A stretch of DNA of 42,770 bases, taken from NCBI GenBank assembly GCA_024281375.1, contig JAJSAD010000076.1, positions 1 through 42,770 of the forward strand. The letters are read 5' to 3'. A program made the translations under genes and the position numbers. Positions 9,587-42,240 of the stretch are shown piece by piece. Source of the stretch: Alphaproteobacteria bacterium. Lineage in GTDB: Bacteria; Pseudomonadota; Alphaproteobacteria; Caedimonadales; UBA9215. Within the stretch, counting starts at the first letter, position 1; each line of letters opens with the position of its first letter. The notes under the pieces were generated by a model. That model did not search any database. It saw nothing but the letters and a program-made list of their open reading frames with translations, and was not told where the DNA came from.

Positions 9587-9686
9587 TCATCTTATTTTTT
9601 GCTTATTTTATAACACATTTCATCCCTTAGCACTCTGAAAAAAATATACCCATCCTCTTTCAACGTCTGGGACTTTTTTGAAACGA

Positions 9687-11213
9687 CTATACCTTTTTCA
9701 ATCTGATATTCGGGACCTTGAGGAAATAACAAAGCAAACGTGTTACAAAAGCCCCAATAATTGTGACTATAACGGCATAAGTGATGGGTTTTGCACTGAC
9801 AGAATCCGATTGATAGATTAAAAAGAGAGACAATAACGTTCCCCATATCATAGCAATTTCTGCATAAAGAGCACCATTCAAAGCAATAATATCACGGCTC
9901 TCACTTAAAAGATCTCGCATAATGCTACCCCCTGCTGAGGTTAAAAACGCAAAGAAACCACCCCATAACCAAAGGGGCTCTGCCTTTGCAAGAACAGAGA
10001 CAATCACACCCGTCACCGTAAAGCTTGCAAGCCCCAAAGCATCCGTCACCATCAAAAAGGTAGTGGCTCTGGACGTTAAAGAGAAGGGTTGTTTTTCCAG
10101 CTTATCTTTATTCTTCCTTTTATGGAGTATGCGAATAATAAACGTTCCTCCCAAAACAGTCAGAATCACAATAGACAAATAAATAGGCGTCCTTAAAAGT
10201 CCAATGGGGTCCCGCTGGAAAATAACATCACGGACAATTCCTCCCCCAAGAGACGGCAAAAGAGCAAACAAAAAGGCCCCGAATAAAGTTGCATTTTGGC
10301 GGTAAGCAATCAGCAAGCCTGAGATAGCAAAAGCAAAAATCCCCAAAATCTCAATTAATTGAAACCACCAGGCTGATGCCGTTTGCAATAAAAGAACGGG
10401 ATAAAGATAAGAGCGAATAATTTCTTGGTACTGATTCGTTTCACGCACTTTATCAATGGCAGCATTAATTTTTTTTATGGTTTCGGGTGTTGTGATCTTT
10501 TTACTAAACATCAAATGAATGGGCGTTTTAAGAGGGAGAGGAACTTCATTAAGCTGCCCCCCTAATTCATGACGCCAAATCATCGTCGCCCCCACCAAGC
10601 GATCGGCAAGAAAGCCTTGAACTTTACCAGCAAGCAAAGCTTCTATACTGCCCTGATCCGTTGGAACTTTTAGGATATAGGGCTCGTTTTTAGGGTCTTT
10701 TATCCATTTATTAATCTTAGGATCGGCGTAAATAAACCCATTAATCACGGAAATTTTGAGATTTTTTTTCACGATACTCTTTAGAAAATTATCCACAGAA
10801 GATGAATCAAATAAAGCCTCTTCCCCCCGCAAAACAAACAACGAATTTTCCTCAAAACGATAGGGTTTGGTAAAATAGACAAAAGCTTCTCTTTCTTTTG
10901 TCTTGGTGGCTCCCATAGAAAAATCCCGTTTACCGGCACGCAAATCGTCTTGCTGTTCCTTCCAAAAACGCTCTTCAAAAATAAGATTAAAACCGGCTTC
11001 TTTTATAATGCTTTTTACCAAAGCCACATCAAGGCCTGTCACCTGTCGTTGGGCATTTATAACTTCTTCAAATTGGTAAGGATCCCAAGAATACCACCCC
11101 GTTAACAGCTCCTTTTTAGGAGACGAATCCTTTGCAAACACAAGGGGAGCAAAAGAAAGAAAAGAAAGAAAAGAAAGGAAAATAAGGCTAAAAAAGAGTA
11201 GTAAACGTTTCAT
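9687..11213 (-). CDS. Fusion of a family 3 solute-binding domain with a UPF0126/TRIC-like membrane domain
   Basis: The protein starts with a strong signal peptide (M-K-R-L-L-L-F-F followed by an L/F/S-rich core ending F-A-P-L-V-F-A). This favours the ATG at 11213 over one 11 codons upstream at 11246. About 230 residues of SBP_bac_3 type follow: G-W-Y-S-W-D-P-Y-Q-F near the start, G-L-D-V-A-L-V-K-S-I, and the T-K-T-K-E-R-E...Y-F-T-K-P-Y segment. The C-terminal half has six to seven membrane spans and two copies of the UPF0126 motif, G-G-G-I-V-R-D and G-G-S-I-M-R-D. Stand-alone UPF0126 proteins resemble trimeric cation channels and some are linked to glycine transport. Ligand-gated or substrate-delivering transport of an amino acid is an inference. 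Confidence 0.85.
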   Translation of the reverse strand: MKRLLLFFSLIFLSFLSFLSFAPLVFAKDSSPKKELLTGWYSWDPYQFEEVINAQRQVTGLDVALVKSIIKEAGFNLIFEERFWKEQQDDLRAGKRDFSMGATKTKEREAFVYFTKPYRFEENSLFVLRGEEALFDSSSVDNFLKSIVKKNLKISVINGFIYADPKINKWIKDPKNEPYILKVPTDQGSIEALLAGKVQGFLADRLVGATMIWRHELGGQLNEVPLPLKTPIHLMFSKKITTPETIKKINAAIDKVRETNQYQEIIRSYLYPVLLLQTASAWWFQLIEILGIFAFAISGLLIAYRQNATLFGAFLFALLPSLGGGIVRDVIFQRDPIGLLRTPIYLSIVILTVLGGTFIIRILHKRKNKDKLEKQPFSLTSRATTFLMVTDALGLASFTVTGVIVSVLAKAEPLWLWGGFFAFLTSAGGSIMRDLLSESRDIIALNGALYAEIAMIWGTLLSLFLIYQSDSVSAKPITYAVIVTIIGAFVTRLLCYFLKVPNIRLKKV

Positions 11214-29273: not shown

Positions 29274-29475
29274 ATAAAGGCAGAAAAAGAAAGAGGAGAG
29301 TAAAAAAAATAGGGAAAATAAAAAGGGGAAATAAAAAGGGGAAATACCATCTAAACCTTCCTCTCTTTTCACACCTTTCTCTCCTTCCTAACTTCCCTCT
29401 TTCCACACCTCCCCCGTGAAATTTTTGATATATAGACATATTTTATCAGTATTTTGGACTATTTGTACACTACCC
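29274..29475. repeat. Purine/pyrimidine arms and core copy 1 of a dispersed repeat
   Basis: A purine-rich arm (29278-29345, with tandem AAAAAGGGGAAAT) is followed by a pyrimidine-rich arm (29354-29415) and a core of about 50 bp (29416-29466) reading ATTTTTGATATATAGACA then TATTTTGGACTATTTG. The core is shared with 29628-29675 and 42138-42195. The first 27 bases of the purine arm (29274-29300) recur at 29684-29716 with a 6-base insertion. No gene is visible here. Confidence 0.7.
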
Positions 29476-29786
29476 GCCCCTTTTAAAAAAAAGGCTATAT
29501 GATCTAAACCCTTCCTGCCTCCGGCTCTTCCTTTGTTTCTCCTGCCTCTGATTCTTCCTTTGTTCCCCTTTCCGCAAGAAAACTTCCTTTTTCTTTTTTA
29601 CCCCCCCTGCCTCCCCCGCGATATTTTTGACATATAGGCATTTTTTATCGATATTTTTGACCGTTAGTCAAGAAATTGGCAGAATAAAGGCAGAAAAAGA
29701 AAGAGAAAGAGGAGAGGCGGGAAAAGAGGTAGGGGAATGAAAAAAAGGAAGTAAATAAAAGGAAGTAAATAAAAAGGGGCGGGTAG
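29470..29786. repeat. 317-bp element bounded by a perfect 15-bp inverted repeat, with core copy 2
   Basis: CTACCCGCCCCTTTT (29470-29484) is the exact reverse complement of 29772-29786, and similarity continues imperfectly a few bases outward. The left half is pyrimidine-rich, the right half purine-rich, and the central ~60 bp (about 29625-29680) hold core copy 2 (ATATTTTTGACATATAGGCA, then TTTTTGACCGTTAGTCAAGA). The whole could fold as a long imperfect hairpin, MITE-like. The interval 29373-29838 contains no gene. Confidence 0.7.
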
Positions 29787-29838: not shown

Positions 29839-30180
29839 ATGAATCAAAAAATAATTCTTTCTTACAGCGTATTATTTTCTTTTTATTTTGGAATATCTCA
29901 TGCAGCAATCGTGACCAATGTTGATGTTCCTTATCAATGTCAATTACATGTAGAATATAATTGGGGGCGCACTCTGGATTTTGATATTCCTAAGGTCGGT
30001 AAAAGCACTGAAATAAATCTAGGTAATCATAAAATTATTAGAATGAGCTGTAAATCCTATGCCGGTGCGGGGAATGAAAAAACATTTTGCATTGTTCAAA
30101 AAGGACTCACCATAAAAACACTAAAAATCTTTAATGAAAAAGATCCCTTTGGAGATTATCCTGCATGCAAGGCCGAGTAA
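29839..30180 (+). CDS. Small exported protein of unknown function
   Basis: The 113-residue protein has a signal peptide (M-N-Q-K-I-I-L-S-Y-S-V-L-F-S-F-Y-F-G-I-S-H-A, cleavage near residue 22). The mature part is short and β-rich with four cysteines, in Y-Q-C-Q, M-S-C-K, T-F-C-I and P-A-C-K, suggesting two disulfides. AAGGA lies 8 bases before the ATG. I do not recognise a family. It sits between two repeat regions, typical of accessory DNA. The cysteine layout is loosely like the exported protein at 16972 but the sequences are not clearly related. Confidence 0.6.
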   Translation: MNQKIILSYSVLFSFYFGISHAAIVTNVDVPYQCQLHVEYNWGRTLDFDIPKVGKSTEINLGNHKIIRMSCKSYAGAGNEKTFCIVQKGLTIKTLKIFNEKDPFGDYPACKAE

Positions 30181-30277
30181 CTCTCATTGACTGTATCGTC
30201 CTTCTAAAATATATATAGAGAAAAAAAGAGAGATCATGGGTAGGACCTCCCCTCCGTTCTTGCTATAGTCAATTCAG

Positions 30278-30401
30278 TTTCGACGTGTGGATTTTAAAAC
30301 CAGACCAGAGCTCCCGGAACGTCTACTTCATACGTGAGGACATTATGATTTTGGGATGTGTCGCCATTTTGCCAATAAAGAGACTTGGCCACAGTTTGAA
30401 A
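30278..30401. repeat. Palindromic element copy A upstream of dapB (mini-ORF on minus strand)
   Basis: This ~124-bp element begins TTTCGACGTGTGG and ends CCACAGTTTGAAA, an imperfect terminal inverted repeat. It is nearly identical to copy B downstream of dapB, in the same orientation. On the minus strand a frame of 32 codons runs from GTG (30392) to TAA (30294-30296), ending T-Y-E-V-D-V-P-G-A-L-V-W-F. Copies A and B differ at 4 of 93 bases here plus one whole-codon indel. The element ends about 40 bases before dapB. Nothing else is visible in 30181-30442. Confidence 0.85.
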
Positions 30402-30442
30402 GAGGAGGGGTCTATATATAAATATTTTTTTAGGTATCCAAG

Positions 30443-31219
30443 ATGATTAATATTGGTATTTTGGGCGCCAATGGGCGCATGGGCAAAACATTACTTGAGG
30501 CTGTGATCGCTGATGAAGGAGCCATTTTGCGGGCCGCAACGGTGCGTTCTGGAAATGACTTAGAAGGACAACCTATCCCGTCACAAGACATTTGCTATGA
30601 AACAGACCTTAAAACAGCCTTTCAACACTGCGATGTTATGATTGATTTTACCCTTCCCGAAGCAACACAAAGCTTTTTGAAAGCAGCGATTTCTTTTAAA
30701 ACCCCCCTTGTTATCGGAACCACGGGTCTCAACACACCAGAACATCACCTTATGGAAGAGCTCGCCCATGTGGTACCTGTGGTTTATAGCACCAATATGA
30801 GCCTCGGCATCACCCTTTTGAATGCGCTGGTTGAAAACGCTGCCCGCACTTTGGGGGAAGAGTTTGACATCGAAATTCTTGAGATGCACCATCGCCATAA
30901 AAAAGACCTCCCCTCTGGAACATCCTTAACTCTCGGTGAATACGCGGCCCGAGGCCGTGAAGTCGATATAAAAAATGTTCAATGTAGTCGCCATCAACAC
31001 GGTGCCCGAAAACCCGGAGAAATTGGATTTGCAGCCCTACGCGGCGGTGGTGTCTTTGGAGATCATGATGTTATCCTCGCCTCTGACGAAGAGGTTATCA
31101 CACTCTCCCACCGTGCCTTAACAAGATCAGTTTTTGCCAAGGGAGCCCTGAAAGCTGCCAAGTGGATCGTCACGCAGCCCCCAGGACTTTACAGCATGAA
31201 AGATGTTCTCAAATTATAG
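30443..31219 (+). CDS. dapB: 4-hydroxy-tetrahydrodipicolinate reductase
   Basis: The 258-residue enzyme acts in the diaminopimelate/lysine pathway, which supplies peptidoglycan cross-links. It shows the N-terminal nucleotide-binding G-A-N-G-R-M-G-K (9-16), I-G-T-T-G-L, the catalytic E-M-H-H-R-H-K-K-D-L-P-S-G-T segment, and the C-terminal H-R-A-L-T-R-S-V-F-A-K-G-A-L. It appears intact. It stands alone, bracketed by direct copies of a palindromic element, which suggests it is transcribed on its own and that this locus is open to repeat insertion or recombination. Confidence 0.96.
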   Translation: MINIGILGANGRMGKTLLEAVIADEGAILRAATVRSGNDLEGQPIPSQDICYETDLKTAFQHCDVMIDFTLPEATQSFLKAAISFKTPLVIGTTGLNTPEHHLMEELAHVVPVVYSTNMSLGITLLNALVENAARTLGEEFDIEILEMHHRHKKDLPSGTSLTLGEYAARGREVDIKNVQCSRHQHGARKPGEIGFAALRGGGVFGDHDVILASDEEVITLSHRALTRSVFAKGALKAAKWIVTQPPGLYSMKDVLKL

Positions 31220-31265
31220 TCGATTCAAAAAAATATTTTTGAGTCATTCAACTATGCCTATTCAG

Positions 31266-31392
31266 TTTCGACGTGTGGGTTTTAAAACCAGACCAGAGCT
31301 CCCGAAACGTCTACTTCATACGTGAGGACATTATGACTTTGGGATGTGTCACCGTTTTGCCAATAAAGAGACTTGGGGGCCACACGTCGAAA
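31266..31392. repeat. Palindromic element copy B downstream of dapB (mini-ORF on minus strand)
   Basis: This 127-bp copy has perfect 13-bp terminal inverted repeats, TTTCGACGTGTGG (31266-31278) and CCACACGTCGAAA (31380-31392). The minus-strand frame runs from GTG (31383) to TAA (31282-31284) and ends T-Y-E-V-D-V-S-G-A-L-V-W-F. It carries one extra CCC codon compared with copy A. An AT-rich hairpin (31222-31245) lies between dapB and the element. Nothing else is visible in 31220-31415. Confidence 0.85.
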
Positions 31393-31415
31393 GAGGATGG
31401 GTATAAATTAAGATT

Positions 31416-42090: not shown

Positions 42091-42240
42091 TTTCTTTCTC
42101 TCTCCCCTTTTTTTTCCTCAATCCCCTGCCTTACCCATGCGATTTTTGACAAATAGACAATTTTCATCAACATTTTGGACTATTAGTCAAAAATTCAAAA
42201 AAAGAAGGTGGAGTAGGAGAAAGAAGAGTAGTATACCACC
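42091..42240. repeat. Third copy of the dispersed core repeat with pyrimidine and purine arms
   Basis: A pyrimidine-rich arm (42087-42135) is followed by a ~55-bp core (42138-42195) reading GATTTTTGACAAATAGACAA, then TTTTGGACTATTAGTCAAAA (a GACTATTAGTC palindrome), then a purine-rich arm (42197-42230). Spacing and sequence match the cores at 29416-29466 and 29628-29675. The 42016-42326 gap holds only this and the short direct repeat. Confidence 0.75.

What the first reader, a model, noticed from the sequence alone, without database searches (positions are those of the whole stretch)
30278..31392. dapB is bracketed by direct copies of a palindromic element that carries a conserved mini-ORF
Sequence: copies at 30278-30401 and 31266-31392 share terminal inverted repeats (perfect 13 bp in copy B). 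A minus-strand frame of 32-33 codons is open in both, with only 4 differences in 93 bases and one indel of exactly one codon. Knowledge: Rickettsia palindromic elements are ~100-150-bp mobile repeats that often keep an open frame. Inference: this may be an analogous selfish family in another lineage. The direct orientation also makes dapB deletable by recombination.
Basis: partly seen in the sequence, partly recalled or inferred. Interest (0 to 1): 0.66.

Follow-up and report, generated by a model that had tools for sequence, protein, structure and literature searches.

The report
Mobile palindrome sharing rickettsial element core
The two near-identical stretches around the dapB gene are copies of a small jumping DNA palindrome that sits at 40 or more other places in this Holosporales genome, and although the tiny "gene" inside it shows no sign of being used, its central hairpin is shared with Rickettsia-type palindromic elements and with other repeats across Proteobacteria.

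Summary
The copies span 30264-30416 and 31253-31405, wider than first reported. They belong to a non-autonomous mobile family (a MITE) with at least 38 copies of 127 bp or more, plus deleted and hybrid copies, in this 1.85-Mb Holosporales genome. Its terminal inverted repeat is about 26 bp (TATACC...GGTATA). One copy nested in a second palindrome family shows a clean TA target duplication. Copies are almost all intergenic. No transposase with matching ends was found in the assembly.

The mini-ORF claim fails. Substitutions show no coding selection in any of six frames, stops arise at the chance rate, and the 127-128-bp form differs by frame-breaking indels.

The Rickettsia hunch turns out better than an analogy. 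A covariance model of this family hits elements in seven other alphaproteobacterial genomes, and one of those translates to an RPE1 domain (TIGR01045) above the curated cut-off. What is shared is a central hairpin, AGCGTAY-loop-RTACGTGA: 332 pattern hits against 10 for the reversed control in 385 class genomes. It lies inside elements with unrelated arms, including a family with 5-bp duplications. The family itself does not match RPE1 and does not insert in genes. Bracketing of dapB is what chance spacing would give.

The parts
30264..30416 (+). Copy A of the element (long form), hybrid left end TATAGTCAATTCAG, right end GGGGTCTATA; includes outer TA of each end
31253..31405 (+). Copy B of the element (long form, 153 bp), left end TATGCCTATTCAG, right end GATGGGTATA
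30316..30340 (+). Central hairpin core of copy A, GGAACGTCTACTTCATACGTGAGGA (stem carries a mismatch, as in most long forms)
31304..31328 (+). Central hairpin core of copy B
30294..30392 (-). Mini-ORF of copy A, 32 codons plus stop; not under detectable coding selection
31282..31383 (-). Mini-ORF of copy B, 33 codons plus stop; not under detectable coding selection
30443..31219 (+). dapB (4-hydroxy-tetrahydrodipicolinate reductase), single match in this genome; flanked, not part of the element
31215..31256 (+). Miniature palindrome of a second family (TATAGTCGATTCAA...); it supplies the TAG stop of dapB and abuts copy B
9645..9691 (-). 47-bp hybrid remnant: end of second family joined to right end of this family

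Best explanation
The repeat is a non-autonomous DNA element (MITE) of a Holosporales bacterium. SHOWN: about 26-bp imperfect terminal inverted repeats ending in TA; insertion at TA with TA duplication; two main size forms (127-128 bp and 148-153 bp) plus internally deleted forms down to about 31-65 bp; intergenic location; hybrids with a second TA-ended palindrome family; and a central hairpin shared with RPE1-type and other palindromic elements. INFERRED: it was moved in trans by a TA-specific DDE transposase (IS630/Tc1-mariner type would fit) that is now absent or unassembled here, and intergenic bias reflects removal of gene-disrupting copies. The open frames are a by-product of the sequence, not a selected gene. 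The central hairpin is an older module that has been re-housed in elements with different ends; what it does is not known. My best guess is a structured RNA or DNA motif that makes the insert tolerable or recognisable to a host factor.
For: Copies: 43 BLAST matches, 47 left-end and 49 right-end pattern hits with no control hits, 49 two-ended elements of which 38 are 127 bp or longer. TA duplication: the copy at C40:960-1095 lies inside a second-family copy whose uninterrupted sequence is known, giving X-TA-TACC...GGATA-TA-Y against X-TA-Y. The reverse nesting at C14:98718-98936 also fits TA. Intergenic: 36 of 38 full-length copies are not contained in an ORF of 100 aa or more; the two contained ones lie 5' of a PagL domain and in a domain-less ORF; other overlaps are at gene 5' ends, e.g. 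before gpsA. No coding selection. Core link: model R1, built only from this family and its UBA9215 relative, hits seven other class genomes (E 3e-7 to 6e-4). Its hit G033:C44 translates to TIGR01045 RPE1 at 31.3 bits (cut-off 30), and a pattern-found G165 element at 32.0 bits. Core pattern: 332 hits in 40 of 385 genomes, control 10 hits in 9 genomes (my tally).
Against: No autonomous parent or matching transposase was found: the only DDE_3 (IS630-type) hit is on contig C27, whose stretch carries none of these ends and has a different look. An empty site in a related genome was not shown; the same-genus genomes lack the family next to dapB, but synteny is also lost. Core hairpin: within this genome it is not more conserved than the rest overall (51 of 126 windows are as conserved; only ATACGTGAGGAC stands out), and most long forms carry a stem mismatch, so it is not shown to be needed for spread.
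Confidence: 0.82

Rival explanations
1. It is a bona fide Rickettsia-type palindromic element in the full sense: a selfish element kept open so that it can insert in frame in protein genes.
For: Size, palindromy and shared core. The long form is open end to end on the + strand (YLFSFDVWVLKPDQSSRSVYFIRED...) and the short form on the - strand. The short copy before gpsA continues the gpsA frame upstream.
Against: No coding selection in any frame, stops at the expected rate; no clear in-gene copy; no RPE1 profile match for its own frames.
Confidence: 0.1
2. It is a structured RNA or regulatory element (terminator, RNase III or promoter element, as known for Correia repeats) kept by the host for function.
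For: Hairpin folding with z about -2.2 for copy B on either strand; intergenic placement; central core conserved over a phylum-wide sample.
Against: Copy A folds no better than shuffled sequence on either strand (z 0.26 and 1.19). No Rfam match in the window or in the copies tested. Long forms have lost a core stem pair. No expression data.
Confidence: 0.15
3. The mini-ORF encodes a small functional peptide carried by the element.
For: Frame open in about half of long copies; starts with GTG.
Against: 63 distinct variants: codon positions 23/19/21, synonymous 18 observed against 17.1 expected, stops 5 against 4.2. Frame shifted in the short form and in the +1/-1 copies.
Confidence: 0.02
4. The pair around dapB is a special arrangement (composite transposon or programmed deletion of dapB).
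For: Direct orientation, 988-bp spacing.
Against: The two copies are not each other's closest relatives. About one pair within 1 kb is expected by chance at this copy number. dapB is a single-copy biosynthetic gene.
Confidence: 0.03

Closest known systems
Rickettsia palindromic elements, RPE1 (NCBIfam TIGR01045; Ogata et al. 2000, as reviewed in PMC2229807 and PMC10969869)
   Same: About 105-150 bp palindromic repeats with terminal inverted repeats and an open frame in the consensus; shared central hairpin AGCGTAY-loop-RTACGTGAGGA, through elements that do match RPE1.
   Different: Own frames do not match RPE1; intergenic; frame not selected; ends TATACC with TA duplication, whereas the review lists RPE target duplication as unknown.
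Correia/NEMIS elements of Neisseria
   Same: About 105-155 bp in two size forms, inverted repeats of about 24-26 bp, TA ends, target duplication, mostly intergenic for the long form (features from PMC2229807).
   Different: Different host lineage; Correia sequences were not compared here, and no shared core was looked for.
RUP of Streptococcus pneumoniae (IS630-Spn1 driven)
   Same: Small non-autonomous element with TA target, intergenic (PMC2229807).
   Different: RUP has a proposed partner IS; none found here.
GTAG- and CGTC-tagged REPs (PMC3733652)
   Same: Short palindromic repeats, CGTC ones common in Alphaproteobacteria, some inside larger palindromes.
   Different: Core stem and tag differ (no GTAG or CGTC tag in the reported arrangement); whole element 128-153 bp with inverted repeats.

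Membership tests
MITE (non-autonomous inverted-repeat element) | Many dispersed short copies without a transposase gene | tested here: met
   49 two-ended copies, 33-219 bp
MITE (non-autonomous inverted-repeat element) | Terminal inverted repeats | tested here: met
   TATACCTATTCAGTTTCGACGTGTGG / TATACCCATCCTCTTTCAAACTGTGG
MITE (non-autonomous inverted-repeat element) | Target-site duplication | tested here: met
   TA, from nested insertions at C40 and C14
MITE (non-autonomous inverted-repeat element) | Autonomous partner with the same ends | tested here: not met
   No longer element with these ends; the one DDE_3 gene has no such ends. MITEs may outlive their partner, and the assembly is a draft (104 contigs)
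Rickettsia palindromic element (RPE1) | Peptide matches TIGR01045 | tested here: not met
   Own frames, no match even at E 10; other core-bearing elements do match
Rickettsia palindromic element (RPE1) | In-frame insertions inside protein genes | tested here: not met
   Copies intergenic or at gene 5' edges
Rickettsia palindromic element (RPE1) | Palindromic 105-150 bp element with the conserved core | tested here: met
   Rickettsia genomes themselves could not be named in the collection
Rickettsia palindromic element (RPE1) | Open frame maintained | tested here: not met
   Six-frame substitution test, mini-ORF test
IS630/Tc1-mariner-driven elements | TA target and TA-ended inverted repeats | tested here: met
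IS630/Tc1-mariner-driven elements | Mobilised by an IS630-type transposase | not testable with these tools
   Needs a transposition assay
Correia/NEMIS | Sequence homology to Correia repeats | not tested
   Only properties compared, from PMC2229807

The most novel reading that the evidence does not exclude
A single ancient hairpin module, AGCGTAY-loop-RTACGTGA(G), is carried in the middle of many otherwise unrelated miniature transposable elements across Proteobacteria, including RPE1, this Holosporales family and possibly an E. coli repeat. It has been passed between elements that use different ends and different target duplications (TA here, 5 bp in genome G155), because it does something at the RNA or DNA level.
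Probability: 0.4. Interest if true: 0.75.

Novelty: new variant of a known kind. Interest (0 to 1): 0.58.

Why it matters
RPEs are described in the reviews read as a Rickettsia speciality, remarkable for peptide insertions in genes. If their central hairpin belongs to a wider superfamily of intergenic miniature elements, then what is conserved is the nucleic acid and not the peptide, and the in-gene peptide of RPE1 looks like a by-product of one lineage. The shared core in elements with different target duplications makes it testable whether hairpin modules move between transposon ends.

Tried and rejected
Plasmid and phage collections: no match to the element. Viral contigs: no match to the core pattern. 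Genome contigs pattern: only Holosporales UBA9215. Rfam: no match to the element in the window or in the copies tested. Search for an autonomous copy by paired ends: none. Idea that the 33-bp shorter copies in G155 mark insertion of the core as a unit: rejected, two of them look like a deletion between GTGAG direct repeats. E. coli nuoL-nuoM copy as an empty-site test against K-12: rejected, the K-12 spacer is unrelated sequence. Searching a Rickettsia plasmid by accession or by peptide gave nothing usable, so the RPE link rests on the NCBIfam model. Kink-turn reading of the core: rejected, the GA pairs are not conserved on the 5' side.

Full report
What is there. Copies A and B flank dapB in direct orientation. 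Their true extents, fixed by alignment with other copies, are 30264-30416 and 31253-31405. Search of the whole 1.85-Mb genome found 43 matching places. End-pattern searches gave 47 left-end and 49 right-end sites, with no hits for reversed patterns. Pairing ends gave 49 elements, 38 of them 127 bp or longer; a few of the shortest are doubtful. The host is a Holosporales bacterium by relationship: the same-genus genome G001 holds the same element-bearing 5,832-base contig as UBA9215, DOCA01000084.1.

Anatomy. Consensus short form: TATACCTATTCAGTTTCGACGTGTGGGTTTTAAAACCAGACCAGAGCTCCCGGAGCGTATACTTCATACGTGAGGACAGCGATGTGTCGCCGTTTTGAAAGnCCACAGTTTGAAAGAGGATGGGTATA. The long form has about 10 extra bases after GGACA and about 12 before the right arm. 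The one related-genome copy is of the short form, so the short form is probably older (inference). Left and right arms can be converted: some copies carry left-type ends on both arms (C51:31941, C1:1885), others right-type on both (C58:6275, C11:99746).

Mobility. At C40:960-1095 a copy interrupts a member of a second palindrome family. Removing TACC...GGATA plus one TA restores that family's sequence, so the target duplication is TA. At C14:98718-98936 the second family sits in the first, also at TA. The second family (106 bp, TATAGTCGATTCAATAAAGTCC...) has 45 matches here, 50 in G001 and 13 in G002. Hybrids between the two are common, and copy A is one.

Mini-ORF. In 26 long-form rows 63 distinct variants fall on codon positions 23/19/21; 18 are synonymous (17.1 expected) and 5 make stops (4.2 expected). 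A six-frame test on 21 long and 9 short copies shows no frame with excess synonymous or depleted stop changes. The long form happens to be open end to end on the + strand, the short form on the - strand.

Gene context. Of the 38 full-length copies only two are wholly inside an ORF of 100 aa or more: one 5' of a PagL domain, one in an ORF with no Pfam domain in low-complexity sequence. Others only touch gene edges. The dapB orthologues in G001 and G002 have no such copies beside them, but their neighbourhoods differ.

Wider family. Covariance model R1, built from this family alone plus the UBA9215 copy, hit seven other genomes among 289 of the class. Aligned, only the centre is common to all but two or three of them: (G/C)nAGCGTAY-loop-RTACGTGAG. 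The G033 hit translates to RPE1 (TIGR01045) at 31.3 bits, cut-off 30; a G165 element reaches 32.0, and G341 is weaker at 22.4 bits. The pattern AGCGTAYN{3,7}RTACGTGA has 332 matches in 40 of 385 class genomes against 10 for the reversed control (totals summed by me), and matches in 71 of 398 genomes of the phylum (singletons there may be chance). Named carriers include Phyllobacterium, Sphingobium, Shinella and Ensifer plasmids and E. coli. Loop lengths of 3 to 7 break any common reading frame, so conservation is of nucleic acid.

Different ends, same core. In G155 the core sits in elements with ends GAG(G/A)CCATTTCAAAAC; 14 of 17 have 5- or 6-bp target duplications, while mixed flanks give 4 bp in 0.4% and none longer. 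The window family duplicates TA. G249 elements share both core and TATACC...GGTATA ends with the window family. So the core has been housed in at least two transposition systems. How it moved between them is inferred; hybrid formation seen here between two families is a plausible route.

Limits. Within this genome the core is not more conserved than the rest, apart from ATACGTGAGGAC, and most long forms have a mismatched core stem. Its function is unknown. No transposase was found; the genome is a 104-contig draft. The pattern fixes the stem bases, so stem pairing in pattern-found copies is partly by construction; the model hits are free of that.

Literature. Reviews list TA ends, target duplication and hairpin transcripts as common to bacterial MITEs, and describe RPE as Rickettsia-specific with in-frame gene insertions (PMC2229807, PMC10969869). 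REP superfamilies are tagged GTAG or CGTC (PMC3733652). I found no paper describing the AGCGTAY...RTACGTGA core, but most subscription papers, including an original RPE paper that I tried, are not in the library.

Noticed in passing
L099-L128; second family, e.g. G000:C64:4059-4164: The second palindrome family (106 bp, TATAG ends) has arms that co-vary within a copy (e.g. L103 TATACTC..GAGTATA; L100 a matching 2-base deletion on both arms); own arms pair at 78% of positions, mixed arms at 69%. Either arm correction or selection on the hairpin.
   Followed up: partly
window 31215-31219: The stop codon of dapB (TAG) lies in the TATAG end of a miniature second-family palindrome.
   Followed up: partly
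window 29408-29466, 29610-29668, 42129-42187: Another dispersed repeat of about 59 bp, CCTCCCCCGTGAAATTTTTGATATATAGACAT..., three copies, two of them 78-81% identical to the first.
   Followed up: no
window 29289-29354 and 29722-29779: Purine-rich short tandem tracts (AAATAAAAAGGGG) upstream of the small ORF at 29839.
   Followed up: no
G000:C27 (L042, L043): Contig with broken IS4- and IS630-type genes that looks compositionally unlike the rest; possibly a foreign contig in the bin.
   Followed up: no
G165 (133 core matches in 0.9 Mb): An unnamed small genome packed with RPE1-like elements.
   Followed up: partly
G000:C41:7984-8111: A short-form copy directly upstream of gpsA is open in frame with gpsA, giving a possible N-terminal extension.
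   Followed up: partly
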